A stretch of DNA of 42,161 bases from positions 8,303-50,463 of the forward strand of contig MFXS01000004.1 in NCBI GenBank assembly GCA_001788925.1, in the 5' to 3' direction. Position numbers and translations under genes: made by a program. The notes below the pieces were generated by a model. It was not told the origin of the DNA. It saw only the letters and a list, made by a program, of their open reading frames with translations, and did no database searches. The DNA is from Candidatus Peribacteria bacterium RIFCSPHIGHO2_01_FULL_55_13 (GTDB taxonomy: Bacteria; Patescibacteriota; Gracilibacteria; Peribacterales; Peribacteraceae). Shown one piece after another: positions 1,074-41,012 of the stretch. How positions within the stretch are numbered: the first letter of the stretch is position 1; every line of letters starts with the position of its first letter.

Positions 1074-2059
1074 TACTCCCGATACCAATCGACAAACTTT
1101 TTCACTCCTTCTTCAATCCTTGTTTTTGGCTTGTAGCCAAGCATCTTCTGCGCTTTGGAAATGTCCGCTGATGTCGAAACAACGTCGCCGATCTGCATTG
1201 GGAGAAATTCTTTTTTGCCTTCTTTTCCGCATGCTTTCTCGACGGCGCTCACATAGTCCATCAACTCTTCCGTTTTTCCTCCGCCAAGGTTATAGATCTC
1301 ATACGGATCATTGCGATCAATGGCGGCAATCACACCGGAGACGATGTCGTCGATGTAGGTGAAGTCGCGCTGCATTTTTCCATGGCCGAAGATCGGCAGG
1401 GTCTTTCCTTTCATCACTGCATCCGTGAACAGGAAGAGCGCCATGTCGGGGCGGCCCCACGGCCCGTAGACCGTGAAGAAGCGGAGTCCCGTGCTGCGAA
1501 CGCCGTACACGGAATGGTAGACGTAGGCCTGCAGCTCGTTGGCCTTCTTCGTGAATCCGTAGATCGAGATCGGATGATCCACCGGGTGACTTTCCGAAAA
1601 CGGCTGTTCCTTGTTGTCGCCGTAGACGGCGCTTGTGGAAGCGTAAATCAAGCCGCCGATCTTATGCGTTCTCGTCGCCTCGATGATTCTGTTAAACCCG
1701 ACGACGTTGTCCTGTAAAAAGATATCCGGGTTATCGAGGGAGTGGCGGACGCCGGCTTGGGCAGCGAGGTGGCAGACGCGGGTGACGATTTGCGATTTGC
1801 GATTGATGATTTGCGATTTGTCGCTGCTGCTTGTGAGAGCATCGAATGCATTATCAAGAGTTTTTGGATCCGTGATGTCGCCGCGGACGAGGGTGAAGCC
1901 TTTCTCTTTCTCCAAAATCGCATTGCGGGCGACTTTGAGCGTGGGGTCGTAGTACTCGTTGAAGTTATCGATTCCGATTACCTCGTCTCCGCGCTTCAGA
2001 AGCGCCTGTGCGACGGAGAAGCCGATGAAGCCGGCCGATCCTGTAACGAGTATGCGCAT
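1061..2059 (-). CDS. NAD-dependent epimerase, UDP-glucuronate 4-epimerase-like (SDR)
   Basis: MRILVTGSAGFIGFSVAQALL, CHLAAQAGVRHSLDNP, YGFTKKANE; start moved to the internal Met before the Rossmann motif. Confidence 0.9.
   Translation of the reverse strand: MRILVTGSAGFIGFSVAQALLKRGDEVIGIDNFNEYYDPTLKVARNAILEKEKGFTLVRGDITDPKTLDNAFDALTSSSDKSQIINRKSQIVTRVCHLAAQAGVRHSLDNPDIFLQDNVVGFNRIIEATRTHKIGGLIYASTSAVYGDNKEQPFSESHPVDHPISIYGFTKKANELQAYVYHSVYGVRSTGLRFFTVYGPWGRPDMALFLFTDAVMKGKTLPIFGHGKMQRDFTYIDDIVSGVIAAIDRNDPYEIYNLGGGKTEELMDYVSAVEKACGKEGKKEFLPMQIGDVVSTSADISKAQKMLGYKPKTRIEEGVKKFVDWYREYYGI
1787..1822. repeat. Heptad-period repeat cluster (word ATTTGCG) inside the epimerase CDS
   Basis: gatttgcgatttgcgattgatgatttgcgatttgtc, period 7. 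Confidence 0.85.
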
Positions 2060-2080
2060 GCGAAAACATCTTATCATTAA

Positions 2081-2191
2081 TGACCAATGACCAAATTACA
2101 ATGACCAAACAATAACCAGTACACCCTGATCCCCTGGTTTTGTTCATTGAGTATTTCTCCTGCCTGGTCATTGTAATTTGGTCATTGGTCA
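2081..2191. repeat. Heptad-period hairpin element (word TGACCAA) with perfect 27-bp inverted arms
   Basis: 2081-2107 tgaccaatgaccaaattacaatgacca is the exact reverse complement of 2165-2191. Confidence 0.95.
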
Positions 2192-2193
2192 CT

Positions 2194-3504: not shown

Positions 3505-3510
3505 ACGTGA

Positions 3511-3592
3511 GAATACTAGAGTATTAGAATACTAGAGTACCAGGAAAAGGTCGCACGCTTTTTCATGTCGTCCTAGTATTCTAGTACTCTAG
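3511..3592. repeat. Octad-period hairpin element (words AGAATACT/AGAGTATT)
   Basis: gaatactagagtattagaatactagagtacc ... cctagtattctagtactctag; arms pair with one mismatch over about 20 bp. Confidence 0.85.
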
Positions 3593-3602
3593 CCCTTACA
3601 TC

Positions 3603-4601
3603 GTGCCCAAGCGCATCCTGATCACCGGCTCCATCGCCTACGACCTCCTCCTTTCGTATGAAGGTTCGTTTGCCGATGCGATCAAAGGGGGATCCATCGA
3701 CCGGCTTTCCGTGAGCTTCTTCGCGCCGCATCTTAAGCGCCACCGCGGCGGCACGGGCTCCAACATTGCATGGAACCTGAGGCTTCTTGGCGGCAATCCG
3801 TTACTCGTGGGGACAGTTGGTACGGACGGAGGGGAATACTGCGCGCTCATGGAAGAGCGGGGTATTGATACGTCACACGTCGAACGGAGAAAAGACAGCA
3901 TCACGGCGACGGCGATTATCGGGACAGATAACGGCGAGCGGCAGATTGCATTCTTTCATCCCGGCGCGGATTCACTGGGTACGTGGCCCGCCTACGCTTC
4001 TGAGGAAGCTTCGGTGGGCAGGCCAAATCTCAATGAGGAACGCGATGATATTGCATGGGCGATTGTCGGTGCGCGCAATCCTGTTCTCATGATGGAAGCT
4101 GCGCGATGGTGCGGTAAAGCGGGATTGGCTCTTCTCTTTGATCCCGCGCAGCAGATCATCGCGCTGAGTGCGGATGAATTACGATCGGCGATCGGAGCAA
4201 GCAGGGGAGTCATCTGCAATGAATACGAATGGAGTGTGCTTTCCGAGCGGACAGGAATGCAGGCAGAGGACATTCTGCAGACAGCGGAATTTCTGATTGT
4301 GACGCAGGGGGATAAGGGAGTCGAGCTCTACGAGAATGCAAAAAGCAAAAATAAAAAAGCAAAAATTCCCGCCTGCAGAGCTGATCAGGTGATCAACCCG
4401 ACCGGAGCAGGGGATGCATTCCGTGCAGGACTATTATTCGGTTTAGAAAAGAAATGGGATCTTGCGGATTGCTGCAGACTCGGCGCTGCGATGGGATCAT
4501 TTGTTGTGGAGATTGAGGGAACTCTGTTGGAAGGCCTTGATATAGATGTCGTCGGACAAAGAGTGCAGCAAACCTATGGCAAAACTCTTCCTCTCCTGTA
4601 A
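3603..4601 (+). CDS. PfkB-family carbohydrate/nucleoside kinase (adenosine kinase-like)
   Basis: GGTGSNIAWNLRLLGG and NPTGAGDAFRAGLLFGL motifs; directly upstream of ahcY. Confidence 0.88.
   Translation: MPKRILITGSIAYDLLLSYEGSFADAIKGGSIDRLSVSFFAPHLKRHRGGTGSNIAWNLRLLGGNPLLVGTVGTDGGEYCALMEERGIDTSHVERRKDSITATAIIGTDNGERQIAFFHPGADSLGTWPAYASEEASVGRPNLNEERDDIAWAIVGARNPVLMMEAARWCGKAGLALLFDPAQQIIALSADELRSAIGASRGVICNEYEWSVLSERTGMQAEDILQTAEFLIVTQGDKGVELYENAKSKNKKAKIPACRADQVINPTGAGDAFRAGLLFGLEKKWDLADCCRLGAAMGSFVVEIEGTLLEGLDIDVVGQRVQQTYGKTLPLL
4338..4368. repeat. Heptad-period repeat (word GCAAAAA) inside the pfkB-family CDS
   Basis: gcaaaaa gcaaaaa taaaaaa gcaaaaa ttc. Confidence 0.7.
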
Positions 4602-4611
4602 CAATCCCCCC

Positions 4612-7841: not shown

Positions 7842-7848
7842 AATTCAA

Positions 7849-7877
7849 GAATTCGGAATGCGGAATTCGGAATTTTT
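7849..7877. repeat. Heptad-period repeat (word GGAATTC/GGAATGC), single arm
   Basis: gaattcggaatgcggaattcggaattttt. Confidence 0.85.
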
Positions 7878-7895: not shown

Positions 7896-7985
7896 GGAGA
7901 GGTCGCATAGTGGCCTAGTGCGCACGCTTGGAAAGCGTGTAGACCTGAAAGGGTCTCGGGGGTTCGAATCCCCCCCTCTCCGCCA
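7896..7985 (+). tRNA. tRNA-Ser(GGA), CCA encoded
   Basis: ggagagg/cctctcc acceptor, cacgc-ttGGAaa-gcgtg anticodon arm, long variable arm, ggttcgaatcc T arm. Confidence 0.95.
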
Positions 7986-8284: not shown

Positions 8285-8389
8285 AGTGGAGATGAGCGTA
8301 GCGCGTATGCCTTGTATCTGCAATTGGCAGGAAAGAAAGGAGTGAGGAGCTAGGTGGAAGCGGAGGAAAAACTGCTATCCTGTGCGGGT

Positions 8390-10807
8390 ATGAAGCTCTC
8401 CCTGGAATGGCTTTCGGAGTTCGTGACCTTCACGACCACCGATCCCGAAGAGATTGCACGGCGCCTGACAGCGCACGTGGGTGAAGTCGACGATGTCGAA
8501 ATTCAGGGGAAGTATCTGAAGGATTGCTGTGTGGGCAAAGTGAGCAACCTCCGCAAGCACCCGGGCGCCGACAAACTGAATCTTTGCAATGTGGAGACCG
8601 ATCGCGGCGTGAAGAACATTGTCTGCGGCGGCACGAACCTGCGCGAGGGGATGCTTGTTGCGTTTGCGCATGTGGGAGCAACGGTGAAGCACGGCGATGA
8701 AAAGATGACACTCAAAGAAGCCAAGATTCGTGGGGAGAAGAGCGAAGGAATGATCTGCGCGGCGGAGGAGCTGGAACTAAAGGATATGTTTCCGGCGAAG
8801 AAGGAAGATGGGGAACGGCCCGTCATCGAACTGAAAGTGGAAAGTGGAAAGTGGAAAGTGGGGATGTCACTCAAAGAAGCATTGGGCATGGATGATGTGG
8901 TCTTTCACATCGATAACCATGCGATCACGCACCGGGCGGATCTTTTCTCGCACATTGGATTCGCACGTGAGTGTGTGGCGATAGGGATTGCGAAGTGGAA
9001 GAAAAAGCCCGAATTCAAGGCTTCGAAAGCGGGCAAGCAGGCATTGCCATTCAAACTCATTGTCGAAGAAAAGAAGCTGATGCCGCGGTACTGCGCGTGT
9101 GTCATTGAGATTGATGGGCTTGGGGAGACGCCGGCGTGGATGAAGAAGCGCCTGAGGGCCGTAGGCTGGAGGCCGCTGAATCTTCCTGTCGACATCACCA
9201 ACTACGTGGCCACAGAAGTCGGCGTGCCGCTCCATAGCTTCGATCTCGACGACATCCGTGGCGATGTGCACATGCGGAAAGCCAAAGAAGGGGAAAAGAT
9301 CACGACGCTCGATGGCAAAGAATGGAAGTTGCCAGCGGGGGCTCTCATTTTGAGCGACGACGAAGGAATCTTCGACATGCTTGGGATCATGGGAGGGCTC
9401 CGGAGTTCCACGAAGAATTCCACCCGCCGCATTTACCTTCACAGCGCTTCGCTCGATCCCGTTTCCATCCGATTCACCGTCATCGCCACGGGTCATCGCA
9501 CGGATGCCGCCACTGTCTACGAAAAGACTGTGCCGCATATCACGACCGAACAGGGGTTTTTCCGCGCTCTTCAATTATTTCTCGAGCTTGCCCCGGGCGC
9601 GCGTGCCGGCTCCAAGATCGAGTCATACGGGGACAACGGAGAAGGGAAGCCGATCACATTCTCCGCTTCATATGCGGAAGGAAAGCTGGGCACGGCCATT
9701 CCAGAGAAGACGATCGTGAAAATTTTTGAAGATTTGGGGTGCGTTGTACGAGCGCAAAAAGGAACCCTTCGACTTGGCTCAGGGCAAGCAAGCAAAAAGG
9801 AAAAGTCATTGGCGGTCACTCCTCCGCTCTGGCGCCTGAAGGATCTGAATGGGCCGCATGATCTGGTGGAGGAAGTGGGCCGCGTCTACGGGTTCGACAA
9901 AATCCCGGTCACGCTGCCCGAAGCTTCCATTGCGCCGCCCGCGCGCGACAAGCGCATCCACCACCTTCGCGATGCCCTTGGCGCGCTTGGGTACATGGAG
10001 CTGGTGCCGCTTTCCCTCGTGGGCCCGGAGCTTCTGAAGAAATGCAATCTGGATCCTGCCAAGTGTGTGCAGGTGGAAAACCCCATTGGGGAAGAAGTGA
10101 GCATCATGCAACCCTGTGTGATGCCGCAGATTCTGGATCACGCGTCGCGGAACATGCTTCTGGTCGGCGACGCGCTCAAGACGTTCCACATCGGCAAGAT
10201 TTTTCTTTCCGGGGGAGGGGAGGTCCTCGCATTCGGAGCGCTAATCGCCAGCCGCAACGAGACCACGCCTGCCACGGAGCCGTTCCTCCGGCTCAAACGC
10301 GATGTTCTTACCGCGCTTTTGCATGCGGGATACCAGGCCGAAGTTACGCCGGGTGAACCCACGCCCTCCACAGCCCATCCCGGGCGCGTGGGCGATATCA
10401 GCGTTGAGGGAAAAACGTTCGGAAAGCTTTTTGAAATCCATCCGGCGGTCCGTGAACGGTTCGATCTTCCGCACCGCGCTGCCGGCGTCACGATGGATTT
10501 GGATGTTCTTTTGAAGATTGCGCCCAAAGAACGTCATGCGAAGGCGCTGCCCCAGTTCCCCGCCATCACCTACGACGTCACGATGACACTTGATCGTAGC
10601 AAGGTGCTCAAAGGAATCCTTGAGAAGATCCGTATATCCTCACCACTTCTGGAATCCGTCGAAGTGGCGGATATCTACTCGGGGAAGCCGCTATCGAAAG
10701 AGCAGTACAATGTCACCGTTCGTTGCACCTATCGGAGCCCGGAGAGGACGTTGACGGAAGAGGAGGTGAAGGAGGCTCATGAAGTCTTGATGAAAGGGGT
10801 GGCCTGA
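8390..10807 (+). CDS. pheT: Phenylalanyl-tRNA synthetase beta subunit
   Basis: MKLSLEWLSEFV; EMAP/tRNA-binding domain; GWRPLNLPVDITNYVATEVGVPLHSFDLDDI; C-terminal anticodon-binding fold. Confidence 0.95.
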   Translation: MKLSLEWLSEFVTFTTTDPEEIARRLTAHVGEVDDVEIQGKYLKDCCVGKVSNLRKHPGADKLNLCNVETDRGVKNIVCGGTNLREGMLVAFAHVGATVKHGDEKMTLKEAKIRGEKSEGMICAAEELELKDMFPAKKEDGERPVIELKVESGKWKVGMSLKEALGMDDVVFHIDNHAITHRADLFSHIGFARECVAIGIAKWKKKPEFKASKAGKQALPFKLIVEEKKLMPRYCACVIEIDGLGETPAWMKKRLRAVGWRPLNLPVDITNYVATEVGVPLHSFDLDDIRGDVHMRKAKEGEKITTLDGKEWKLPAGALILSDDEGIFDMLGIMGGLRSSTKNSTRRIYLHSASLDPVSIRFTVIATGHRTDAATVYEKTVPHITTEQGFFRALQLFLELAPGARAGSKIESYGDNGEGKPITFSASYAEGKLGTAIPEKTIVKIFEDLGCVVRAQKGTLRLGSGQASKKEKSLAVTPPLWRLKDLNGPHDLVEEVGRVYGFDKIPVTLPEASIAPPARDKRIHHLRDALGALGYMELVPLSLVGPELLKKCNLDPAKCVQVENPIGEEVSIMQPCVMPQILDHASRNMLLVGDALKTFHIGKIFLSGGGEVLAFGALIASRNETTPATEPFLRLKRDVLTALLHAGYQAEVTPGEPTPSTAHPGRVGDISVEGKTFGKLFEIHPAVRERFDLPHRAAGVTMDLDVLLKIAPKERHAKALPQFPAITYDVTMTLDRSKVLKGILEKIRISSPLLESVEVADIYSGKPLSKEQYNVTVRCTYRSPERTLTEEEVKEAHEVLMKGVA
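8833..8863. repeat. Heptad-period repeat (word GTGGAAA) inside pheT
   Basis: gaaagtggaaagtggaaagtggaaagtgggg. Confidence 0.9.
9765..9784. repeat. CCCTTCGACttgGCTCAGGG-type repeat inside pheT
   Basis: cccttcgacttggctcaggg; encodes RLGSGQ in frame. Confidence 0.75.
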
Positions 10808-10808
10808 C

Positions 10809-10885
10809 CATTTACGATTGACGATTTCTGATTTGCTGTTTGCAGCTGAAAATCGTAAATCCACAAATTGTAAATCGTAAATCGG
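10809..10885. repeat. Heptad-period hairpin element (word TTTACGA/TAAATCG)
   Basis: catttacgattgacgatttctgatttgctg ... aaaatcgtaaatccacaaattgtaaatcgtaaatcgg. Confidence 0.9.
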
Positions 10886-11755: not shown

Positions 11756-11787
11756 TGGAAAATATAGTACCATCTTTCATAAGAACA

Positions 11788-11848
11788 TTTGCCATTGTCC
11801 ATTTGCGATTTGCCATTCAATGACAAGTGATAAATGGCAAATGGAAAA
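11788..11848. repeat. Heptad-period hairpin element (word TTTGCCA)
   Basis: catttgccattgtccatttgcgatttgccattca ... gataaatggcaaatggaaaat. Confidence 0.85.
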
Positions 11849-12020: not shown

Positions 12021-12103
12021 GAGTGGAAAATGGAAAGTATAAAATGCAAAAACAACGTGATTTTCGTCATTCTCAATTCTCCATTCTCCATTCTCCATTT
12101 CTC
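12021..12103. repeat. Heptad-period hairpin element (word TTCTCCA/TGGAAAA)
   Basis: gagtggaaaatggaaagtataaaatgca ... cattctcaattctccattctccattctccatttctc. Confidence 0.85.
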
Positions 12104-15091: not shown

Positions 15092-15511
15092 ATGCAACGC
15101 ACCCTCATCCTTCTGAAACCCGACGCCGTCGACAAACGCATCTGCGGCAAAGTGATCGACCGCTTCGAGCGCGCCGGACTTGATATCCGCGGCTTCAAAA
15201 TGATCCGCCTCACTCCGGCGGTGCTCAAGGATCACTACGCTCACATCGTAGCCAAGCCCTTCTATCCGGAGGTGGAAAAGTTCATGGGATCGCTGCCAGT
15301 GATTGCTCTGGTTCTTGAAGGAGATGACGCCGTCGCCAAAGTCCGTGACATGCTCGGCGCGACCGACAGCCGCAAAGCAGCCCCCGGGACTATTCGCTCC
15401 GAGCTGGGCGTGGACCAGATGGTGAACGTTGCCCATGCGTCCGATTCGCCGGAAGCGGCGGAGGCGGAGGTGAAGAGGTTCTTTAAGCCGGAGGAGTTGT
15501 TCAGCTACTAA
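15092..15511 (+). CDS. ndk: Nucleoside diphosphate kinase
   Basis: MQRTLILLKPDAVDKRICGKVIDRFERAGL...GTIRSELGVDQMVNVAHASDSPEAAEAEVKRFF (His in NxxHASD). Confidence 0.96.
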   Translation: MQRTLILLKPDAVDKRICGKVIDRFERAGLDIRGFKMIRLTPAVLKDHYAHIVAKPFYPEVEKFMGSLPVIALVLEGDDAVAKVRDMLGATDSRKAAPGTIRSELGVDQMVNVAHASDSPEAAEAEVKRFFKPEELFSY

Positions 15512-15596
15512 GGATTCAAAGGATTCAGAAGATTCAAACGATTCAGAGGAAGGTCCTTTGAATCCTCTAAATCTTTTTAATCCTGTTATTCCTTTT
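15511..15596. repeat. Nonad-period hairpin element (word GGATTCAAA/GGATTCAGA)
   Basis: ggattcaaa ggattcaga agattcaaa cgattcaga ggaaggtcctttgaatcctctaaatctttttaatcctg. Confidence 0.85.
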
Positions 15597-16864: not shown

Positions 16865-16897
16865 AGTGTATAGGGCGTAGGGCGTAGGGGGTAGGGT
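16865..16897. repeat. Heptad-period repeat (word AGGGCGT), single arm
   Basis: agtgtatagggcgtagggcgtagggggtagggt. Confidence 0.85.
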
Positions 16898-16943: not shown

Positions 16944-17528
16944 ATGCATACTAGAGTCGTGAAAGAATCCACTGCATCACTTCGGCCCGATATGCGCGTC
17001 ATCGATATTGTTACGCTTGTGCCGCAAGCGGCTGATGTGATGGCGGCGTGGGGTCTGCATTGCAGTGGATGTTCTGTCGGCGGACTCGAATCATTGGAAG
17101 AAGGATGCAAAGCGCATGGCTATGGGGAAGAGGAGATCCGGTTGCTTCTGGAAGATATCGAAGAAGCGCGTGGGGCGACGTCTGCGCGGCCGGCCTCCAT
17201 CATCATTACGGCTCCCGCTGCCCGCGCCATCCGCGCCATCGGCGAGCAGGAAGGAAAATTACCGAGCGAAACAGCGGGGCTCTCGGTGATCGTCGACGGA
17301 GAAGGGGGATTCTGCATGGAGTTTTGCGACGCACCCGAAGAAGGGGACCGCATCTTCCTCAATACCGAAGAACCTGACGTGCGCGTGTTTGCGTCGCCGC
17401 TCACACTCGGCCGTATTGGCGGCGCAACGATCGATTTCCGTGACGGTCGCTTCAAACTCGATCTTCCAGAGGATTCCTGTGCGTGCTTAGAGCAAAGTTG
17501 TGGCTGCGCGACCGAGCGCAAAAAGTAA
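16944..17528 (+). CDS. Fusion of DUF1858-like domain and HesB/IscA-like Fe-S domain
   Basis: MRVIDIVTLVPQAADVMAAWGLHCSGCSVGGLESLEEGCKAHG then IIITAPAARAIRAIGEQEG...CACLEQSCGC. Confidence 0.8.
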   Translation: MHTRVVKESTASLRPDMRVIDIVTLVPQAADVMAAWGLHCSGCSVGGLESLEEGCKAHGYGEEEIRLLLEDIEEARGATSARPASIIITAPAARAIRAIGEQEGKLPSETAGLSVIVDGEGGFCMEFCDAPEEGDRIFLNTEEPDVRVFASPLTLGRIGGATIDFRDGRFKLDLPEDSCACLEQSCGCATERKK

Positions 17529-17597
17529 AAAGCATAAAGCAAAAATTCGCTATGATGTGAGCAGGTTTCTTTCCTTTTTGCTTTATTCTTTTTGCGC
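17516..17597. repeat. Heptad-period hairpin element (word AAAAAGT/AAAAAGC), arms differing by one unit
   Basis: gcgcaaaaagtaaaaagcataaagcaaaaa vs right-arm reverse complement gcgcaaaaagaataaagcaaaaa. Confidence 0.88.
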
Positions 17598-18177: not shown

Positions 18178-19522
18178 TTTGTTTGCTGGTTTGCTGGGTT
18201 GCGGGTTCGTTTTGGCGGTGGGTTTCCCTGTCACAGCCATCGCGGCACCTGTGGAAATCACGCTGCGCCATAAGCATCACATCTTCACCGTGAAACCCGC
18301 GCAGTATCCGTCGTGGCGGTCTTCGCAGGAAGAATTCCGATACAAGGGAGAGGCCTTCCGCGCTCCGCAGGGGATGCGTATCGACGGGGATACGACTCCC
18401 GCTCTGCCGCCTGGCATCACACGCACCACCGTGCAGCAGTGGGACACGGCCGCGATTGCCGCCACGCTGCAGCAGAAAATTGCTCCGGCATTGGACCGGG
18501 AACCAGGTACGGTACGCATCAGCCGCACGCTTGACGGAAGCATTGCCTTCGAAGGTGCGGGGCTTCCGGGCCGGAAGCTCAATAGCGCAGCCGCAGCCGC
18601 GCTCATTGCGGAAGCGCTCTCGCGAGAGATCGCCGATGTCACGCTACCCATCATCACGGAGCAACCCGCGATCATCGTGCTCGATCAGGAACTGCGGCAA
18701 GCGGGTATCACGGAAGTCGTTTCTGTCGGCGAATCGGATTTCAGCGGCTCTCCGCTGGCCCGGCGCCATAATATCGCCGTGGGGCTGGAGAAATTCAACG
18801 GGCATCTGATTCCCAAAGACACGGTCTTTTCCTTCAACGAGGTCCTCGGTCCGGTGAACGCCGCGACGGGATACAAGAAGGAGCTCGTGATCCTCGGGGA
18901 ACGCACACTTCCGGATTACGGTGGAGGACTGTGCCAGGTGAGTACGACGGCATATCGCGGAGTATGGGAATACGGGCTTCCCATCGAGGATCGCCGCAAT
19001 CACAGCTTTGCCGTCCGCTACTACGCGCCGCAGGGAACGGATGCAACGATCTATCCGCCGAATACCGATATGCAATTCACCAACGACACGCCGGGTGCGC
19101 TTCTGCTTCAAACCTATGTGCAGAACGACAAGGCGTATTTCATCTACTACGGCACGAAGGACAACCGCCGGAGCGAGATCTACGGTCCCTACACCTGGGG
19201 TCGCACCGAGCCTCCGCCGGACCGCAGCGAGTACACGACGGAAATTCCCGCGGGTACCACGCGCAAAGTGGGAGACCGTGTGCCGGGCATGCGCGCAGCA
19301 TGGTTCCGCGTCACGAGTTTGCCCGAAACTGCAGAGGATATCATCGAGCCGGTGTATTCCGTCTATGAAGCGCGCCCCTTGTTCATGCAGATTGGGGTAG
19401 CGGCAGGATCGTCGCTGCTGGGAGGATCGGCTTCGAGTGAATCAACTGCATCAGTGATGTCGGAAGAATCACCATCAAGCAGAGTAAGAAGTTCGGCAAG
19501 ACCGGTACGGCGGAGAAATTAG
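18143..19522 (+). CDS. VanW-family protein with signal peptide
   Basis: LIPKDTVFSFNEVLGPVNAATGYKKELVILGERTLPDYGGGLCQVSTTAYRGVWEYGLPIEDRRNHSFAVRYY. Confidence 0.9.
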   Translation: MNIRPRIMRNHNLFAGLLGCGFVLAVGFPVTAIAAPVEITLRHKHHIFTVKPAQYPSWRSSQEEFRYKGEAFRAPQGMRIDGDTTPALPPGITRTTVQQWDTAAIAATLQQKIAPALDREPGTVRISRTLDGSIAFEGAGLPGRKLNSAAAAALIAEALSREIADVTLPIITEQPAIIVLDQELRQAGITEVVSVGESDFSGSPLARRHNIAVGLEKFNGHLIPKDTVFSFNEVLGPVNAATGYKKELVILGERTLPDYGGGLCQVSTTAYRGVWEYGLPIEDRRNHSFAVRYYAPQGTDATIYPPNTDMQFTNDTPGALLLQTYVQNDKAYFIYYGTKDNRRSEIYGPYTWGRTEPPPDRSEYTTEIPAGTTRKVGDRVPGMRAAWFRVTSLPETAEDIIEPVYSVYEARPLFMQIGVAAGSSLLGGSASSESTASVMSEESPSSRVRSSARPVRRRN

Positions 19523-20180: not shown

Positions 20181-20253
20181 GGGAAAGGCAGGAAGGGGAG
20201 GAAGGGCAGAAAAGGCAAATGCGCCTTTCTCACCTTTCTCCCTTTCCTTCCTT
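20181..20253. repeat. Nonad-period hairpin element (word GGAAGGGCA)
   Basis: gggaaaggcaggaaggggaggaagggcagaaaaggcaaa ... gcctttctcacctttctccctttccttcc. Confidence 0.85.
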
Positions 20254-25590: not shown

Positions 25591-25595
25591 AGACG

Positions 25596-25672
25596 CTTTA
25601 CAATTTACAATTTTCGGATTTACGATTTGCTGCTGTATGCAAAAATCGCAAATCGAAAATTTATAAATCGCC
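25596..25672. repeat. Heptad-period hairpin element (word TTTACAA/AAATCGC)
   Basis: tttacaatttacaattttcggatttacgatttgc ... aaaaatcgcaaatcgaaaatttataaatcg. Confidence 0.9.
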
Positions 25673-26405: not shown

Positions 26406-26510
26406 AAATTAGCAATGAGGAATTAGAAATTAGCAATGAACCCAAGGAACACTCCCATAGTAATAACTCTGGCAGTAATTGCTAATTCCTCATTGCTAAT
26501 TTCTCATTTC
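26406..26510. repeat. Heptad-period hairpin element (word AATTAGC/AATGAGG), 21-bp perfect arms
   Basis: 26406-26426 aaattagcaatgaggaattag is the exact reverse complement of 26482-26502. Confidence 0.95.
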
Positions 26511-27555: not shown

Positions 27556-27975
27556 TTAATCGTTGCCGACTGTTTCATTCCATCCCTGCAGCTCTTTCCT
27601 TTCTTTCATTCGCAGAGTGTTCTTCAGTACGTGCAGTCCCAGCAGCGCACACTTCACGCGCCTGGGCCCGATCGGCACACCGAGAATGTCATAGACGTTC
27701 TGCGGTGTAAGAGATTCAACTTCACTCAGAGTTTTTCCCTGCAGTTCTTCACTCAGGAGTGACATCGCCGCCTGCGAGATTGCGCATCCTGTGCCGTCCC
27801 AGGAAATTTCAGTGATGCAATCATCCTTGATCGAGAGGTGAATGGTGACGGTGTCGCCGCAACTCAAGTTTTCCTCCATATGAGTAATAACAGCTTGGCC
27901 CTTGGCCAGTGGCCCTTGGCCCTTATTTCTTGGGTGCCGGTAGTGATCGAGGATGTTTTCGGCGTAGAGATCCAT
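27556..27975 (-). CDS. sufU: SufU/NifU-type Fe-S scaffold protein
   Basis: MDLYAENILDHYRHPRNKG...LSCGDTVTIHLSIKDDCITEISWDGTGCAISQAAMSLLSEELQGK. Confidence 0.92.
   Translation of the reverse strand: MDLYAENILDHYRHPRNKGQGPLAKGQAVITHMEENLSCGDTVTIHLSIKDDCITEISWDGTGCAISQAAMSLLSEELQGKTLSEVESLTPQNVYDILGVPIGPRRVKCALLGLHVLKNTLRMKERKELQGWNETVGND
27895..27926. repeat. Heptad-period repeat (word TTGGCCC) inside sufU
   Basis: ttggcccttggccagtggcccttggccctta. Confidence 0.8.
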
Positions 27976-28044: not shown

Positions 28045-29301
28045 TCACGTATGTAATTTTTTCTGCGCATCCACAATCGCCTGCGCACAGACATCAATCT
28101 CTTCTTTCATATTGTAGATTCCCACAGAAAGACGCGTCGATGCGGGTATTCCCAGTTTCGTATGCAGCGGCATGCAGCAATGATGGCCTGCGCGAAGGGC
28201 GATGCCTTGGCGGCCGAGGATCTCGGTCAGATCGTGGGGGTGGACGGAGTCGAGGGTGAAGGAAAGGCAACCATAAACGATTGGCGATTTATGATTTATG
28301 ATTTGCGATTTGCCATCTGTGCCAAGGACGTGGAGCTGCGGAATCAATCGTAAATTATCAATCGCAAATCGTAAAAGTTCTTGCTCGTGAGCTTGAATGT
28401 CCTCCCATGAATACTGTTGCATCCACTCGATCGCCGCCGCGAGTCCGACTGCCTCTGCAATCGGCGGCGTTCCTGCTTCGAATTTTCCCGGGAGATCCGC
28501 CGGAGTGAAACCTTCCTGTGTGACGGAGCGGATCATCATGCCGCCGCCGAGGAAGGGAGGCATCTTCTCGAGGAGTTTTCTCTTTCCGTAGAGGACACCG
28601 ATGCCAGTGGGGCCGTAGAGCTTATGGCCGGAGAAGGCCAAAAAATCACAATCCAGATCCTGCACGTCGATGGGCATGTGGGCGATGGCTTGTGCAGCGT
28701 CGATCAACACCCATGCACCCGCGTCGTGTGCCATCGCAATGATTGTTTTCAGATCCGGCGCAATACCCAGAACGTTACTGAGCGCGGTGATTGCCACGAG
28801 CTTCACGCGCCCGGTCTTGAGATGCTTTTTCAAGTCATCCAGTTTCGGCATCCCATCCTCATCAATGTCCATCCAGAGCACGTCCGATCCTTTTCGGTCT
28901 TTCAGTTGCAACCACGGTACCACGTTACTGTGGTGCTCGAGCATCGAGAGCACGACGGCGTCGCCTTCCTGCAGATGTGTCTCGCCCCAGCTCCGTGCCA
29001 CCAGATTGATCGACTCGGTGCAGCCTTTGGTGAAGATGATTTCATCCGGATGCGCGGCGTTCAGAAATTTCTGCACGGCCGTCCGCGCGTCTTCGTACGC
29101 CACCGTGCTTTCCTCGGCGAGTACGTGCATGCCGCGATGCACATTGGATTTCTGTTCCTTGTTCCATCGCGCCATGGCCAGGCAGACGGCCTCGGGCATC
29201 TGGGCGGTGGCCGCGGAATCCAGGTACACCAGCGGGCGTCCGTTGATGCTGCGGCGGAGAACGGGGAATTGCCGACGCACGGAAGAGATGTCCAAAGTCA
29301 C
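28045..29301 (-). CDS. sufS: SufS-type cysteine desulfurase
   Basis: LDSAATAQMPEAV, FSGHKLYGPTGIGVLYGK (PLP Lys), LRAGHHCCMPLHTKLG. Confidence 0.95.
   Translation of the reverse strand: MTLDISSVRRQFPVLRRSINGRPLVYLDSAATAQMPEAVCLAMARWNKEQKSNVHRGMHVLAEESTVAYEDARTAVQKFLNAAHPDEIIFTKGCTESINLVARSWGETHLQEGDAVVLSMLEHHSNVVPWLQLKDRKGSDVLWMDIDEDGMPKLDDLKKHLKTGRVKLVAITALSNVLGIAPDLKTIIAMAHDAGAWVLIDAAQAIAHMPIDVQDLDCDFLAFSGHKLYGPTGIGVLYGKRKLLEKMPPFLGGGMMIRSVTQEGFTPADLPGKFEAGTPPIAEAVGLAAAIEWMQQYSWEDIQAHEQELLRFAIDNLRLIPQLHVLGTDGKSQIINHKSPIVYGCLSFTLDSVHPHDLTEILGRQGIALRAGHHCCMPLHTKLGIPASTRLSVGIYNMKEEIDVCAQAIVDAQKKLHT
28278..28375. repeat. Heptad-period hairpin element (word ATTTATG/ATTTGCG) entirely inside sufS
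   Basis: cgattggcgatttatgatttatgatttgcgatttgcc ... caatcgtaaattatcaatcgcaaatcgtaaaag. Confidence 0.9.
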
Positions 29302-29317: not shown

Positions 29318-29440
29318 TGAATTCGGAATTCGGAATGCGGAATTCGGAATAATTTCCATCAAAACGGGAAAGCTTCATGGAGGCGCGGACTCAAAAATAT
29401 GCTGTAATTCTGCATTCCGAATTCCGCATTCCGAATTTTC
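29318..29440. repeat. Heptad-period hairpin element (word GGAATTC/GGAATGC), 24-bp perfect arms
   Basis: 29327-29350 aattcggaatgcggaattcggaat is the exact reverse complement of 29414-29437. Confidence 0.95.
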
Positions 29441-34496: not shown

Positions 34497-35590
34497 AGAC
34501 TCGCATTGTCATTCTCTCGGCATTTCTTACTCCGTTTCGCAGCGGTGCGGAGGCGTGCGCGGAAGAAGTGCCATTGAGGCTTACGGATCAGTTTGATTTT
34601 ACGATCATCACGGCGCGGATGCGGAAGGATTTGCCCAAAGAAGACATGCTGCAGGGAAAAATTCCGGTGAAGCGCGTAGGTTTTGGATTCAAGTTTGATA
34701 AATGGCTGTACCCGTTTTTAGCGCCTAGGGAAGCAAAAAAATATAATCCGAACATCATTCATGCGATCCTGGAGACGTTTGCGGGCGAAGCATTGATGCG
34801 ATGCAAGGACATCATGCCGTTCGCCCGGCGCCTTCTCACACTGCAGACCACCAACAGGACATTCCGGAAGAAAAAAATCCTGCAATCGCCGCATGTCGTC
34901 ACCGCCATCAGCATGCATCTTGCCGGCATCGCCAATGAAATGAGAGAAGGTGGCGTGAAAATAATTCCGAATGGCATCGATTACGAGGCGATTCGCTCCG
35001 CGTGCGCGAAATATCCGAAAGTTCCAGGCAGAATTTTGTTCGTAGGAAGGCTGGAGCAGATGAAGGGGGTTGATTTGCTCTTAACAGCATACGCCCGTGC
35101 GAATTCGGAATTCGGAGTGCGGAATTCGGAATTGCACATTGTCGGTGATGGATCGCAACGATCTACGTTGGAAAATCTGGCTCGCAAGTTGGGCATCGCG
35201 GACCGCGTTGTCTTCAAGGGGTATATGCGGTCGTCTGATGTGAATCGGGAATATGCGGAAGCAGAGATCTTTTGCGGGCTCAGCCGATCCGAAGCACTCG
35301 GAAATGTATTTATCGAGGCGCAGGCGGCAGGATGTGGAGTCATTCATACCATTGTTGGTGGCATTGAAGAGATCATGATCAATGCTGGTTGGGGAGTGCC
35401 CTATCACGGAAATGCTGAATCTGTAACGATTGTAGAAGCGACAAAGGGCTTATCGGGCTACTTGAACAATAAGGAGCTTTTGGCTCGACATAAGGAAATC
35501 GGTATTGCCAATGCCTCCAAGTATGACTGGAAACCCATCGCAAAACGGTATGCGGACATCTATAAATCCTTTACTCTGGGCCAGTCATGA
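34493..35590 (+). CDS. Family 4 glycosyltransferase
   Basis: ILFVGRLEQMKGVDLLLTAYARA...LHIVGDGSQRSTLENLARKLG; ATGA overlap with upstream gene. Confidence 0.9.
   Translation: MKTRIVILSAFLTPFRSGAEACAEEVPLRLTDQFDFTIITARMRKDLPKEDMLQGKIPVKRVGFGFKFDKWLYPFLAPREAKKYNPNIIHAILETFAGEALMRCKDIMPFARRLLTLQTTNRTFRKKKILQSPHVVTAISMHLAGIANEMREGGVKIIPNGIDYEAIRSACAKYPKVPGRILFVGRLEQMKGVDLLLTAYARANSEFGVRNSELHIVGDGSQRSTLENLARKLGIADRVVFKGYMRSSDVNREYAEAEIFCGLSRSEALGNVFIEAQAAGCGVIHTIVGGIEEIMINAGWGVPYHGNAESVTIVEATKGLSGYLNNKELLARHKEIGIANASKYDWKPIAKRYADIYKSFTLGQS
35101..35133. repeat. Heptad-period repeat (word GGAATTC) inside GT4 CDS
   Basis: gaattcggaattcggagtgcggaattcggaatt. Confidence 0.92.
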
Positions 35591-36678
35591 AGCGCGTTCT
35601 CCTTACCGGCATCGATGGATTTATCGGCCACCACATTGCTGAGGGAATCCTCAAAAATACGGACTGGAAAGTGATCGGGCTGAGCAAGATTGATACTGCA
35701 AGCACGCTGCACCGCCTGCAGGACATTGAGTTCTGGAGCGCCAAATACGCCGGACGGGTGGAATTTGTGTATCACGATCTGCGCGCACCGCTGAATCCCT
35801 ACGTCGCCAACCGCATCGGACCGGTGAATTACATTTTGCACCTTGCCGCTTCCACCCACGTGGACCGCTCCATTGAATATCCGATGGAATTTGTTCAGGA
35901 CAACGTTGTGGGGACATGCAATCTTCTTGATTACGCGCGCACATTGGACGGACTTGAGCTTTTTGCCTACTTCTCCACGGACGAAGTCTTCGGACCCGCG
36001 CCGGAGGGAGTCGCCTATAAGGAATGGGACCGGTACATGAGCAGCAATCCCTACGCCGCATCGAAGGCCGGAGGAGAGGAGCTGGCGTACAGCTACTACA
36101 ACACCTACGGCCTTCCCGTCGTGATCACGCACACGATGAACGTCTTCGGCGAACGCCAGCATCCGGAAAAATTCTTCCCGAAGGTTATCAATGCCGCGCG
36201 GCAGGGGGAGAAGATCTTCATCCACAGCAACCCCGAGCGTACGAAGGCAGGCAGCCGCTTCTACGTCCACGCACGCAACGTCTGCGCCGCGATGCTTTTC
36301 CTCATCGCGCAGCATGAAAAAGGGGCGAAGATCATCGGCGATAAGTTCAACATCGTCGGGGAGCGCGAGATGGATAACCTCACTCTCGCGCAGTTCATCG
36401 CGAAGGTCGTGGGGAAGGAGCTGAAGTACGATCTGGTGGATTTCCACAGCAGCCGCCCCGGGCACGACCTCCGTTATGCGCTTGATGGCACGAAGCTCAA
36501 GGATATGGGCTATGCCCACCCCAAGACTTTTGAGGAAAGCCTTACGAAAACCGTCGAGTGGTACGTGGAACATCCGGAATGGCTGCTTGCGGACTTCAGC
36601 AAGGCGCAATTCCAGAAAGAGGCACACGCCTTCGACGAGGCCGCCAAACCGGCGTTGCAGAAGACGGCGAAAAAATAG
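35587..36678 (+). CDS. NAD-dependent nucleotide-sugar dehydratase/epimerase (SDR)
   Basis: MKRVLLTGIDGFIGHHIAEGIL, LHLAASTHVDRSIEYP, YAASKAGGEELAYSYYNTYGLPVVITHTMNVFGERQHPEKF. Confidence 0.92.
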   Translation: MKRVLLTGIDGFIGHHIAEGILKNTDWKVIGLSKIDTASTLHRLQDIEFWSAKYAGRVEFVYHDLRAPLNPYVANRIGPVNYILHLAASTHVDRSIEYPMEFVQDNVVGTCNLLDYARTLDGLELFAYFSTDEVFGPAPEGVAYKEWDRYMSSNPYAASKAGGEELAYSYYNTYGLPVVITHTMNVFGERQHPEKFFPKVINAARQGEKIFIHSNPERTKAGSRFYVHARNVCAAMLFLIAQHEKGAKIIGDKFNIVGEREMDNLTLAQFIAKVVGKELKYDLVDFHSSRPGHDLRYALDGTKLKDMGYAHPKTFEESLTKTVEWYVEHPEWLLADFSKAQFQKEAHAFDEAAKPALQKTAKK

Positions 36679-36779
36679 TTTATTGGTTTGCTGGTTTGTT
36701 AGTTTGCTTGTTAAGCAGGTCTCCTATGTCTTGAAGTGGATTCTAATAAACCAAAAAACCAGCAAACCAGCAAACCAGA
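36679..36779. repeat. Octad-period hairpin element (word GGTTTGCT)
   Basis: ttattggtttgctggtttgttagtttgcttgtt ... taataaaccaaaaaaccagcaaaccagcaaaccag. Confidence 0.88.
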
Positions 36780-36804
36780 CAACAATCTTCTGTACCATAT
36801 CTCC

Positions 36805-37821: not shown

Positions 37822-37849
37822 GTGTGATCGGGCTACCCACTGAAAAACC

Positions 37850-37888: not shown

Positions 37889-37902
37889 TCCCCATTCTCT
37901 TC

Positions 37903-38148
37903 ATGCGCTCCGTTCTCAGCATCTCTATTCCACCGAAGAAACTCAAGGTTCTGAAGAAGAAAGCCGAAAATAACGGAATGACGGTCAGCGCCTATGTGCT
38001 GCGTATGATTGACGAAGAAGACCACATGATTTCAGAAGAAGAATTGCTGAAAGATCTCCGGCAAGGGGAGAAAGATCTGGCGAATGGAAATTATCGCACG
38101 ATGGGTCCTGATGATGCCATTGAGGATTTTCTTCCCATTAAAAAATGA
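37903..38148 (+). CDS. Ribbon-helix-helix-type antitoxin
   Basis: MRSVLSISIPPKKLKVLKKKAENNGMTVSAYVLRMIDEE; ATGA overlap with toxin. Confidence 0.8.
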   Translation: MRSVLSISIPPKKLKVLKKKAENNGMTVSAYVLRMIDEEDHMISEEELLKDLRQGEKDLANGNYRTMGPDDAIEDFLPIKK

Positions 38149-38414
38149 AGATCCGGCAAATCAATTTTTTGCCGAAATTTCATAAGAATTGGGATGCTCT
38201 TCCGAAAGAAGCGCAAATCAAGGCACGGAAGACCATCGAATTTTTCAGAGCGGACCCATTTCACCCCTCTCTTCGTTTGCATCCTTTACGCGGCAATCTT
38301 CGCAAATACTGGAGCATTTCTGTCGATAGGAAATGTCGCATTATTCTCAGAATTGAGGGCGATATCGCAAATTTTTATTCCATCGGGAGTCATGCGATTT
38401 ATGAGAAGATGTAA
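38145..38414 (+). CDS. RelE/ParE/YafQ-superfamily toxin
   Basis: LPKEAQIKARKTIEFFRADPFHPSLRLHPLRGNLRKYWSISVDRKCRIILRIEGDIANFYSIGSHAIYEKM. Confidence 0.85.
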   Translation: MKIRQINFLPKFHKNWDALPKEAQIKARKTIEFFRADPFHPSLRLHPLRGNLRKYWSISVDRKCRIILRIEGDIANFYSIGSHAIYEKM

Positions 38415-38436
38415 ACAAGGCGTCAGCTTTGTATTT

Positions 38437-38700
38437 TCAAGGCTGTTCAGATACGTTTACCGCTCCCCATTGATGCAACATAACTCGCAAGCCCCTAGCT
38501 GATTCGAGTTGTAGATTCTCAATGGTGTCAGGTGGTACCGCATTTTCAATTTCATCTTCCGAATCTCCCGCTGCAACTATTTCATCTGATTCCGTATCCA
38601 CCGCGATAAAGGTATAATTGCCATATTGTTTATCAAAATCATCGATGCTGAGTTCAGATCTTACATCACGATTGCCTAGAACAAAGTACTCAACTCCCAT
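38437..38700 (-). CDS. Hypothetical acidic protein (87 aa)
   Basis: Intact ORF, no recognised domain. Confidence 0.5.
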   Translation of the reverse strand: MGVEYFVLGNRDVRSELSIDDFDKQYGNYTFIAVDTESDEIVAAGDSEDEIENAVPPDTIENLQLESARGLRVMLHQWGAVNVSEQP

Positions 38701-38802
38701 AGCTTCATAGTAGGTCGGGTATTGAGGTTGTCAACTCTGTTCGGGGGAAGACATCAAAACACCCAATAGGTATATTCTGGAAAGCATTCGCAGTTCCCAC
38801 TC

Positions 38803-39879
38803 ATGAAGATCCTCCTCGCTACCGGCATCTACCCACCCGACATCGGCGGGCCAGCGACGTATACCAAAGCGCTTGCGCAGGAGCTGATCGATTTGAAGCA
38901 TGAAGTAAGTGTCATTACGTATTCTCATCATGCAGATCACACAGACCCTTGGCCTGTCGTGAGAATTTCCAAAAGCGGCGGACCGATCTTACGCTGGTGG
39001 CGCTATAGCAGGGCGATCAAAAAGCATGGAGCCGATGCGGATATCGTCTACGCATTTTCGTCGGTCAGTGTAGGCGTCCCTTTGCGGATGTCTGGTATGC
39101 GAAAACCGAAAAAAATATTGCGGCTGGGCGGGGATTTCCTGTGGGAACGCTATACGGATCGGGGGGGAAGAAAGAGCCTGCAGGAGTGGTACGAGCGTAG
39201 CAATTGGCAGGTAGCAATTGGCAGGTGGCTTCTCCAGCCTTTCGATCACATTGTGTTTTCCACGGTGTTTCAGAAGGAAATTTATGAAAAGGCGTATGCG
39301 ACGCTCCCGGAACATTCCGTCATTGAGAACGCTCTGACCTTCGACGGTCTGTTTACACAAAATCGCAAGCCGCATCAGCCGTTCCGGCTGCTCTTCATGG
39401 GGCGCTTCGTGCGGTTCAAGAATATCGCATCGCTCATTAGAGCAATCGTACATCTTCCGGATGTCACACTGACAATCGTCGGTGAGGGTCCGCTCCGCGA
39501 CACGCTCACAACTCTCACAAAGACACTCGCACTGACGGACCGTGTCCGGTTTCTTCCGCCGGTCGGCGGCAGTGCCAAGGGGCAGGTGTTTCAGGATCAC
39601 GATCTTCTCGTGCTTCCGTCGTTGACGGAGATCAGCCCGAATGTAGCGCTGGAAGCCAAAGGGTCTGGTCTCGACGTGCTTATCACGCATGAGAATGGAC
39701 TCCACATCCTTGCTGATCGTATGTACTTCGCGCCACTTCGGTCTCCAGAGGAGATCACCAAGGCGATCTCCCAGTTCCGGAAGAAGCCATCGGACACAGA
39801 TCAGAGCCCGTTCACGCACTCGTGGTCCGATGTTGCATCGGAAACTATTGCGCTCTTTACTCAGCTTACTGCCCCATGA
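38803..39879 (+). CDS. Family 4 glycosyltransferase
   Basis: MKILLATGIYPPDIGGPATYTKALAQEL; LLFMGRFVRFKNIASLIRAIVHLPDVTLTIVGEGPLRD. Confidence 0.93.
   Translation: MKILLATGIYPPDIGGPATYTKALAQELIDLKHEVSVITYSHHADHTDPWPVVRISKSGGPILRWWRYSRAIKKHGADADIVYAFSSVSVGVPLRMSGMRKPKKILRLGGDFLWERYTDRGGRKSLQEWYERSNWQVAIGRWLLQPFDHIVFSTVFQKEIYEKAYATLPEHSVIENALTFDGLFTQNRKPHQPFRLLFMGRFVRFKNIASLIRAIVHLPDVTLTIVGEGPLRDTLTTLTKTLALTDRVRFLPPVGGSAKGQVFQDHDLLVLPSLTEISPNVALEAKGSGLDVLITHENGLHILADRMYFAPLRSPEEITKAISQFRKKPSDTDQSPFTHSWSDVASETIALFTQLTAP
39198..39229. repeat. Heptad-period repeat, perfect 14-bp tandem (GTAGCAATTGGCAG x2), inside GT4 CDS
   Basis: tagcaattggcaggtagcaattggcaggtggc. Confidence 0.88.
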
Positions 39880-41012
39880 AACTATTAATGATTTCTGGCG
39901 ACCGTTCCATCCTCTCCGGGCAGCAGGGGGCGTTTTGGTACACGCTGCAGGAGATGCGAAAGCATTGGGACAGGATTGATATTATTTGTCCGCGCATCTC
40001 GAAGAGTGGAAAGCTGAAAACGGAAAGTGGAAAGTCACAGGCGCACGATATTCCGAACAATGTTTTCTTCCATCCGTGTTCATGGGGCCTTTTGCGCCAG
40101 TCGCTGTGGATAGAAGAGAAGGGGAAGCGGCTTATTGCCGAGCATCACCATGACGTCATGACAGTTCACGAGTATCCGCCTTTCTATAACGGCCGCGGAG
40201 CGCTTGCTCTTCACAAAAAAACGGGCATCCCGTTTGCACTCGAAATCCATCATATTGTTGGGTGGCCCGTGACGTCGGGCATTACGGAATGGGTCGGTCG
40301 CGAACTTTCACGATGGGTTCTTCCTTCCGAGGCTCGTCGTGCCCGAAAAGTGCGAACAGTGAGTACGGCAATAGAGGAAGAGCTCAAGCATTGGGGCATT
40401 CCTTCCGAAAAACTTTCCATCATCCCGTCGTTTTACCTGGACCACGACCTCATCGGCCGCACTGTGGCGCCCCCGAAGAGTTACGACATCGCGTTTTGCG
40501 CCCGTCTTGTTCCCAACAAGGGGCTGATGAACGTGATCCGGTCGCTCGAGTATCTCCCCAATGCCCGGCTTCTTGTGATCGGCGACGGGCCGATGCGAGC
40601 CGAAGCGGACAAGCTCATCCACGCGATGAAGATCCAAAACCACGTCACGTTCCTCGGATGGCTGCCCACGCTTGAGGCCGTGCTCGATGGCATTCTCGCC
40701 GCCCGTACCTTCGTGATGGCATCTACAAGCGAGGGGGGCCCCCGCAGCGCACTCGAAGCGATGGCTTGCGGCATGCCGGTGATCGCCACGCGGGTGGGAG
40801 TAATGCCCGAAGTGATTGAAGACGGGGAAAACGGGCTTTTCACCGACGGGTCGCCAAAAGACATCGCGGCGAAAGTGGAAATACTGCTGAAGGATGCCAA
40901 AAAGCGTGAACATATGGGCAAGGCCGCACGCAAGATCCTCGACCGCTTTGAGCGCGGAAAACTCGTGGAGAAGTATGCGGAATTCTTGAAAGGAATTGCC
41001 AAAAAGCGTTAA
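39876..41012 (+). CDS. Family 4 glycosyltransferase
   Basis: FCARLVPNKGLMNVIRSLEYLPNARLLVIGDGPMRAEAD; EGGPRSALEAMACGMPVIATRVG. Confidence 0.93.
   Translation: MKLLMISGDRSILSGQQGAFWYTLQEMRKHWDRIDIICPRISKSGKLKTESGKSQAHDIPNNVFFHPCSWGLLRQSLWIEEKGKRLIAEHHHDVMTVHEYPPFYNGRGALALHKKTGIPFALEIHHIVGWPVTSGITEWVGRELSRWVLPSEARRARKVRTVSTAIEEELKHWGIPSEKLSIIPSFYLDHDLIGRTVAPPKSYDIAFCARLVPNKGLMNVIRSLEYLPNARLLVIGDGPMRAEADKLIHAMKIQNHVTFLGWLPTLEAVLDGILAARTFVMASTSEGGPRSALEAMACGMPVIATRVGVMPEVIEDGENGLFTDGSPKDIAAKVEILLKDAKKREHMGKAARKILDRFERGKLVEKYAEFLKGIAKKR
40004..40038. repeat. Heptad-period repeat (word AGTGGAA) inside GT4 CDS
   Basis: gagtggaaagctgaaaacggaaagtggaaagtcac. Confidence 0.82.

What the first reader, a model, noticed from the sequence alone, without database searches (positions are those of the whole stretch)
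1787..40038. Dispersed family of locus-specific heptad-period hairpin elements (candidate undescribed repeat system)
More than 20 loci share one architecture but not one sequence. Each has about 4 degenerate tandem units of 7 bp (a few use 8 or 9 bp), and about half carry a complementary copy 4-65 bp away that forms a long hairpin. Words include TGACCAA, ATTTGCG, GGAATTC/GGAATGC, AATTAGC, GTGGAAA, AGGGCGT, AAAAAGC, TTTGCCA, TTCTCCA and TTGGCCC. They sit in divergent, convergent and codirectional gaps and also in frame inside genes, so transcription termination alone does not explain them. What is conserved is period and folding, not sequence, so ordinary repeat finders would split or miss the family. 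From memory, cyanobacterial STRRs are heptamers (one reported unit is TTGGTCA, the complement of the word at 2081), and degenerate heptads build a stem in the Nostoc tRNA-Leu intron. Sharing across phyla would point to a common generating mechanism.
Basis: partly seen in the sequence, partly recalled or inferred. Interest (0 to 1): 0.88.

Follow-up and report, generated by a model that had tools for sequence, protein, structure and literature searches.

The report
Re-worded heptad hairpin repeats in Peribacteria
This tiny bacterium's genome is peppered with about 300 short arrays, each a 7- to 9-letter DNA word repeated for about 32 letters and often mirrored to form a hairpin; related species keep arrays at the same sites with different words, so the layout persists while the sequence is rewritten by an unknown process.

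Summary
The window lies in a Candidatus Peribacteria (CPR) genome. In 1.12 Mb there are 257 arrays of period 7, 8 or 9 (191/31/35), against 0 in a dinucleotide shuffle; periods 4-6, 10 and 11 are nearly empty. At a slightly lower cut there are 305 arrays, modal length 31-33 bp. About 57% have an inverted partner within 300 bp, against 0.3% in a control. Words are not locus-specific: they form families of up to 40 loci, with species-specific dialects. Arrays sit at the same orthologous sites in sister species, usually with a different word: 44 of 64 against 131 of 1,708 control positions. This includes both arms of hairpins, and frames inside pheT and a glycosyltransferase. Tests for target duplications, required reverse transcriptase or Y1 transposase, and terminator-like placement were negative. 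The kind is known: cyanobacterial heptads, Xanthomonas GGGAATC, Beggiatoaceae TAACTGA. New here are the 31-33 bp modal size, dozens of co-existing words, and genome-wide word replacement at persistent sites. Best explanation, at moderate confidence: old array sites rewritten by short-tract ectopic copying plus slippage. The 7-9 nt period is unexplained.

The parts
1786..1820 (-). In-frame CGATTTG heptad array inside an NAD-dependent epimerase gene (1061-2077, minus strand)
   Evidence: TRF; G003 ortholog is shorter, with about two units; Pfam Epimerase
2079..2191 (.). TGACCAA / TTGGTCA inverted pair filling the intergenic region; orthologs carry AGCTTTC-type heptads
   Evidence: RNA fold z -9.8
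3510..3592 (.). Octad AGAATACT/CTAGTATT inverted pair; ortholog in G003 is a TTTGAGC heptad hairpin, in L084 AGCTTTC, in L085 none
   Evidence: fold z -7.4
4338..4366 (+). GCAAAAA heptad array inside a pfkB-family kinase gene
7849..7874 (+). GAATTCG array next to tRNA-Ser
8833..8861 (+). GAAAGTG array in frame inside pheT (8354-10807); G001, G002, G003 have other heptad words and G004 a degenerate one at this site, same length
10805..10884 (.). TGACGAT / AAATCGT heptad hairpin
   Evidence: fold z -5.1
11786..11846 (.). TTTGCCA hairpin; G003 ortholog has a TTTACGA hairpin
   Evidence: fold z -4.1
12068..12099 (.). CATTCTC single array just upstream of the gene at 12106; unstructured
15510..15596 (.). 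9-mer AAGGATTCA inverted pair between convergent genes
   Evidence: fold z -5.2
16871..16896 (.). TAGGGCG single array
17518..17545 (.). GCAAAAA heptad array at a gene 3' end
18181..18207 (.). GTTTGCTG octad array
20182..20253 (.). 9-mer GGAAGGGCA inverted pair
   Evidence: fold z -5.8
25593..25660 (.). ACGATTT / AAAATCG pair between convergent genes
   Evidence: fold z -3.0
26406..26508 (.). AAATTAG / ATTGCTAATTCCTC inverted pair
   Evidence: fold z -6.3
27894..27924 (.). CTTGGCC in-gene array
28278..28375 (.). CGATTTG pair inside a class-V aminotransferase gene
   Evidence: its arms hit many dispersed loci in G003 and G000
29319..29437 (.). GAATTCG / ATTCCGC inverted pair, divergent intergenic region
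   Evidence: fold z -7.2
35101..35133 (+). GAATTCG array in frame inside a GT4 glycosyltransferase; G003 has ATTGCAG there, G001 GGTTGCA, G002 none
36678..36778 (.). Octad GGTTTGCT / AAACCAGC inverted pair
   Evidence: fold z -4.8
39197..39226 (+). 14-mer (2 x 7) GTAGCAATTGGCAG in-gene repeat
40005..40035 (+). AGTGGAA heptad array in gene

Best explanation
The arrays are a genome-wide class of short (about 32 bp) dispersed repeats whose sites are old but whose words are young. An array site, single or paired as a hairpin, persists through speciation. Its 7-9 nt word is repeatedly overwritten by copying a short tract from another array in the same genome (template switching or short-patch ectopic conversion), helped by slippage within the array. 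This gives species-specific dialects. In hairpins both arms are rewritten from the same pool, so the hairpin survives. Inside genes only rewrites that keep frame and a tolerable peptide survive. The arrays are most likely neutral or selfish filler of permissive places (gene edges and protein loops), not regulators. Shown: the periods, modal size, families, dialects, site persistence with word swap, family-constant polarity, no target duplications, little net length change in genes. Inferred: that copying from other arrays is the rewriting step, and that slippage founds new words. Not explained: why units are 7-9 nt.
For: Families with fixed phase and modal length 31-33 bp at up to 40 loci. Dialects: AATTCCG in G000, AAATCGC in G003, AAAGCTG in G004. 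44 of 64 G003 arrays with an orthologous site have an array there in G000 (34 with another word) against 131 of 1,708 control positions, Fisher p about 1e-31. Hairpin-for-hairpin: 14 of 22 against 18 of 83 (p 4e-4), ten with another word, including 9-to-7 and 8-to-7 changes. pheT: heptad words at one site, equal length, in G000-G003 and a degenerate one in G004; a GT4 gene shows the same. Against array-free orthologs the net length difference of in-gene arrays has median 0, not +32, and 38 of 42 are multiples of 3. Those orthologs keep residual lag-7 identity of 0.313-0.314 against 0.257-0.258, as decayed arrays would. Partner arms are no more alike than arms of different loci.
Against: No copying event was observed; comparisons are between species about 70-80% identical in DNA, so intermediate states are lost. 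Some sites show plain presence/absence (window 4602-4616) and one genome (G040) has elements with related loops, pointing to whole-element insertion. Copying between unlike words at one site needs microhomology that was not demonstrated. Hotspot heterogeneity among intergenic regions is only partly controlled. Gene calls come from a home-made caller. The in-gene length test had only 21 array-free orthologs per species.
Confidence: 0.48

Rival explanations
1. Mobile palindromic mini-elements (MITE- or RPE-like) insert as whole hairpins into a limited set of permissive sites; single arrays are remnants, and word differences reflect different element families landing at the same hotspots.
For: Inverted pairs only: 41 inverted and 0 direct neighbours within 150 bp. 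Word polarity is constant within every family, 127 of 127, including convergent contexts. G040 has about 100-bp copies with related loops. Presence/absence at window 4602-4616.
Against: No target-site duplication: direct flank matches equal the null at k=4-9. Spacers in G000 run from 0 to 258 bp and are essentially unrelated. One pair brackets what reads as a native CIRCE-like promoter. In-gene arrays show little net added length. No transposase was found linked to them.
Confidence: 0.27
2. Functional RNA or DNA hairpins (terminators, mRNA-end or leader structures) kept by selection on folding; sequence is free, and periodicity is a by-product.
For: Strong folds. Hairpins persist at orthologous sites with both arms changed. 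Arms abut stop codons and lie 14-40 nt from starts. Leader arrays are C-rich on the mRNA strand, 63 to 8.
Against: Context equals background: convergent 17% against 16%, divergent 28% against 24%. 85 of 131 singles are inside genes, and a single array tested does not fold. Selection on folding does not create a 7-nt period or dispersed families.
Confidence: 0.15
3. Telomerase-like or reverse-transcriptase addition of heptads to both 3' ends at breaks, followed by joining.
For: Fixed polarity with the G-richer strand reading inward from both flanks: 44 of 52 words in G000 and 32 of 39 in other Peribacteria. Arms independent; no target duplications.
Against: No RVT_1 match in the 97.7% complete own genome. 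The G-rich bias is weak between convergent genes (11 to 6) and strong beside start codons, so it partly reflects leader constraint. In-gene arrays add little net length.
Confidence: 0.04
4. Ordinary replication slippage at each locus, with no exchange between loci.
For: Slippage is the known source of tandem repeats; heptamers are reported over-represented in many bacteria (stated in PMC4692102).
Against: Identical imperfect 28-mers recur at different loci, and families span up to 40 loci with fixed ends. A modal length of 31-33 bp is not the spread of copy numbers expected from slippage. Inverted partners would not arise.
Confidence: 0.06

Closest known systems
Cyanobacterial heptanucleotide repeats (Calothrix, Nostoc) and the Nostoc/Calothrix trnL intron P6b heptad stem (PMC4476775)
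   Same: 7-nt degenerate units; tandem heptads on both sides of a hairpin; replacement of one word class by another at the same site, with repeated independent Class II to Class I shifts reported. Our pipeline finds the period-7 peak and 33-nt inverted AATTCGC arms in Trichormus variabilis plasmid A.
   Different: Here about 27 arrays per 100 kb in a 1.17 Mb genome, dozens of co-existing words, periods 7, 8 and 9, modal 31-33 bp, and word swaps at many sites including protein-coding frames.
Xanthomonas GGGAATC / Nostoc GGGGA(C/T)T repeats (PMC4692102)
   Same: Heptads, mostly four units; about 70 inverted pairs in convergent orientation per Xanthomonas genome; mainly intergenic; repeats of similarly prominent length not at the same genes in sister species.
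   Different: There one dominant G-rich, quadruplex-forming word per genome with up to 26 units; here many words, most lacking G-runs.
Beggiatoaceae TAACTGA direct repeats (PMC4679880)
   Same: Dispersed intergenic heptad arrays, many just upstream of start codons; patchy distribution across phyla; strain-specific paths.
   Different: Single word, direct repeats with almost no inverted partners; related heptamers rare as repeats there.
REP/BIME elements with Y1 (RAYT) transposases
   Same: Dispersed short palindromic repeats, often as inverted pairs.
   Different: No conserved REP sequence; the one Y1_Tnp gene examined in detail is flanked by other palindromes, not heptads; Y1_Tnp not needed.

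Membership tests
Short tandem heptad repeats (cyanobacterial STRR type, in the broad sense) | Tandem arrays of 7-nt degenerate units, dispersed in many copies | tested here: met
Short tandem heptad repeats (cyanobacterial STRR type, in the broad sense) | Same specific words as the cyanobacterial families | tested here: inconclusive
Xanthomonas GGGAATC-type quadruplex heptads | G-tracts able to form G-quadruplexes | tested here: not met
   The commonest words here (AATTCCG, AAATGGC, AAAGTGG, AATTAGC) lack GGG runs
MITE / TIR transposon | Target-site duplications at the outer ends | tested here: not met
   direct flank matches equal the null for k=4-9
MITE / TIR transposon | Conserved internal sequence between the inverted repeats | tested here: inconclusive
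   Not met in G000 (2 same-family hits among 78 spacers); partly met in G040
REP/BIME mobilised by Y1 transposase | Association with a RAYT gene | tested here: not met
   The C40 gene is flanked by CCGCACCC...GGGTGCGG palindromes; G016 and G022 lack Y1_Tnp yet hold GAATTCG-type matches
Intrinsic terminators | Enriched downstream of genes, avoided in divergent regions | tested here: not met
   context counts
Retroelement or telomerase-like addition | Reverse transcriptase in the genome | tested here: not met
   RVT_1 absent from G000, G001, G003, G004

The most novel reading that the evidence does not exclude
A shared, sequence-blind machinery in several phyla (Peribacteria, Cyanobacteria, Xanthomonas, Beggiatoaceae) recognises 7-9 nt periodicity or hairpin geometry rather than a sequence, and rewrites about 32-nt arrays in place, swapping the word of both hairpin arms and of in-frame arrays without changing length.
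Probability: 0.12. Interest if true: 0.95.

Novelty: new variant of a known kind. Interest (0 to 1): 0.72.

Why it matters
Heptad repeats have been noted in scattered bacteria for decades without a mechanism. Here many words share one format (7-9 nt period, about 32 bp, inverted pairs), and sister species show the sites persisting while words are replaced, even inside pheT. That makes the question testable: the rewriting step should be visible in strain-level data. It also warns that ordinary repeat finders and protein aligners will misread these sites, since in-frame arrays are rewritten by a DNA process and not by protein selection alone.

Tried and rejected
Telomere-like end addition: attractive because the G-richer arm reads inward from both sides, but no reverse transcriptase was found in G000 and the skew is largely a leader effect. 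Y1/RAYT mobilisation: rejected. DDE-type transposition: no target duplications. Snap-back local palindrome formation: partner arms are not more alike than non-partners. A shared sub-motif in the words: none beyond |z| of about 2.2 among 38 independent words. Terminators: rejected by context. Cyanobacterial control plasmids NC_003276, NC_010631 and NC_003240 were not held; NC_007410 was used. A plasmid search with a TTGGTCA array gave nothing.
Full report
1. What was checked. The window is contig C4:8303-50463 of a 1.17 Mb, 43-contig genome. Its nearest named relatives by an adenosylhomocysteinase-region protein are Candidatus Peribacteria / Peregrinibacteria MAGs. I fetched 1.12 Mb of this genome (G000), 0.63 Mb of G003 (its pheT contig is the Greene1014_49 locus L128) and 0.39 Mb of G004, all same genus, plus 45 Peribacteria loci of up to 21 kb.

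2. The arrays are real and sharply limited in period. In the window, period-7 clusters number 11 against 0 in ten shuffles, period-8 clusters 3 against 0, and period-9 clusters 2 against at most 1. Genome-wide at score 13 or more: period 7 = 191, 8 = 31, 9 = 35, while 4, 5 and 11 = 0, 6 = 3 and 10 = 1; the shuffled genome gives 0 for 7-9. At score 12 there are 305 arrays with 87 words. The modal length is 31-33 bp (118 of 305), seen clearly for period 7; periods 8 and 9 spread more widely. Within a family the ends are in fixed phase, e.g. AATTCGG x4 + AATT = 32 bp. Words are families: GGAATTC/GGAATGC 40 loci, AAATGGC 17, AAAGTGG 15, AATTAGC 13. Among 38 independent words no common trinucleotide stands out, so the shared feature is period and size.

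3. Hairpins. 57% of arrays have an inverted partner within 300 bp, against 0.3% when the same arrays are placed elsewhere. Related neighbouring arrays within 150 bp are 41 inverted and 0 direct. There are 127 paired elements, spacer median 22 bp, range 0-258. Within each family the polarity never varies, 127 of 127, including convergent contexts. The 5' arm is the G-richer one for 44 of 52 words here and 32 of 39 in other Peribacteria. Part of this reflects leaders: arrays just upstream of starts are C-richer on the mRNA strand 63 to 8, those after stops are not skewed (55 to 49), and convergent pairs show only 11 to 6; array-free leaders are themselves C-richer, 536 to 218. Paired arms are no more alike than arms of different loci, and in G000 spacers are essentially unrelated. 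Pairs sit at gene edges, a median of 5 bp from the nearer gene, and their distribution over codirectional, divergent and convergent gaps equals background. 85 of 131 unpaired arrays lie inside genes.

4. Comparison between species. Dialects differ: AATTCCG leads in G000, AAATCGC in G003, AAAGCTG in G004. At orthologous sites, 44 of 64 G003 arrays have an array in G000 (34 with another word, 10 with the same) against 131 of 1,708 control positions. Paired elements correspond at 14 of 22 sites against 18 of 83 control gaps (p 4e-4), ten with another word, including 9-to-7 and 8-to-7 changes of period. Examples are printed. Inside pheT (array at window 8833-8861), G000, G001, G002 and G003 carry GGAAAGT, GGAGAAT, GAAAATT and ATTTGCG, with G004 degenerate, at the same place and the same length; outgroups G007 and G013 have a loop of similar length without an array. 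A GT4 glycosyltransferase (array at 35101-35133) has GGAATTC, ATTGCAG in G003, GGTTGCA interrupted by a REP-like palindrome in G001, and none in G002. Where the ortholog lacks a detectable array, in-gene arrays show a median net length difference of 0 rather than +32, 38 of 42 in multiples of 3, and the ortholog keeps residual lag-7 identity of 0.31 against 0.26. This suggests old sites that decay or are re-worded, rather than fresh insertions. Exceptions exist: window 4602-4616 has no hairpin, while three relatives have three different ones there.

5. Spread. The same spectrum holds in other Peribacteria loci (69/7/12 for periods 7/8/9 in 722 kb), while 484 kb of loci from other lineages, mostly DPANN archaea, has essentially none. 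Trichormus variabilis plasmid A shows a period-7 peak (11 arrays) and one pair of 33-nt AATTCGC arms. IMG/VR contigs that carry a G000 word also carry other heptad words at high density, but they were chosen for holding an array.

6. Mechanism. Tests for an inserting or adding enzyme were negative: no target-site duplications, no RVT_1 in G000, and Y1_Tnp genes neither flanked by heptads in the case examined in detail nor required. I favour persistent sites re-worded by short-tract copying among arrays plus slippage (0.48). The main rival is repeated insertion of mobile palindromes into hotspots (0.27), helped by family-constant polarity and by the G040 elements with related loops. No copying event was observed. 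The 7-9 nt limit and the 31-33 bp mode are unexplained.

7. Known work. Heptamers are stated to be over-represented in many bacteria, with Xanthomonas GGGAATC pairs in convergent orientation, mostly four units (PMC4692102). Beggiatoaceae TAACTGA arrays are a single-word case (PMC4679880). In the Nostoc trnL intron, one heptad class has repeatedly replaced another in a hairpin (PMC4476775). I found no paper on such repeats in CPR bacteria, in an open-access library only. Hence: new variant of a known kind.

Noticed in passing
window 7896-7985: tRNA-Ser(GGA) lies on the + strand here but on the opposite strand in the syntenic position of L084, L085 and L128: a local inversion beside the GAATTCG array at 7849-7874.
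   Followed up: partly
window 9755-9805 and G001 GT4 locus L304: A REP-like palindrome (CCTTCGACTnnGCTCAGG type) inside pheT; pieces of it hit scattered places in several relatives, and one copy interrupts a heptad array in G001.
   Followed up: partly
L252 (G000 C40:85964-86245) and L253 (C32): Two Y1_Tnp genes; the C40 one is flanked by GCCGCACCC...GGGTGCGGC palindromes, a plausible REP/RAYT pair separate from the heptads.
   Followed up: partly
L273-L279, L282 (G040): About 100-bp hairpin elements: heptad arms, a short partly conserved inner stem (GATGGAAGC...GCTTCCAT type) and a variable centre of roughly 20 nt.
   Followed up: partly
G000 C17:14522-14668: A heptad pair brackets a CIRCE-like inverted repeat (TTAGCACTC/GAGTGCTAA type) between divergent genes, each arm next to a start codon.
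   Followed up: no
L128 7000-7500: The gap after the epimerase gene in Greene1014_49 is enlarged by about 450 bp with a possible small ORF and a terminator-like hairpin, absent in the window.
   Followed up: no
L311, L314, L316, L320: Contigs filed as viral in IMG/VR, of very different GC (0.43-0.65), carry several different heptad words each.
   Followed up: no
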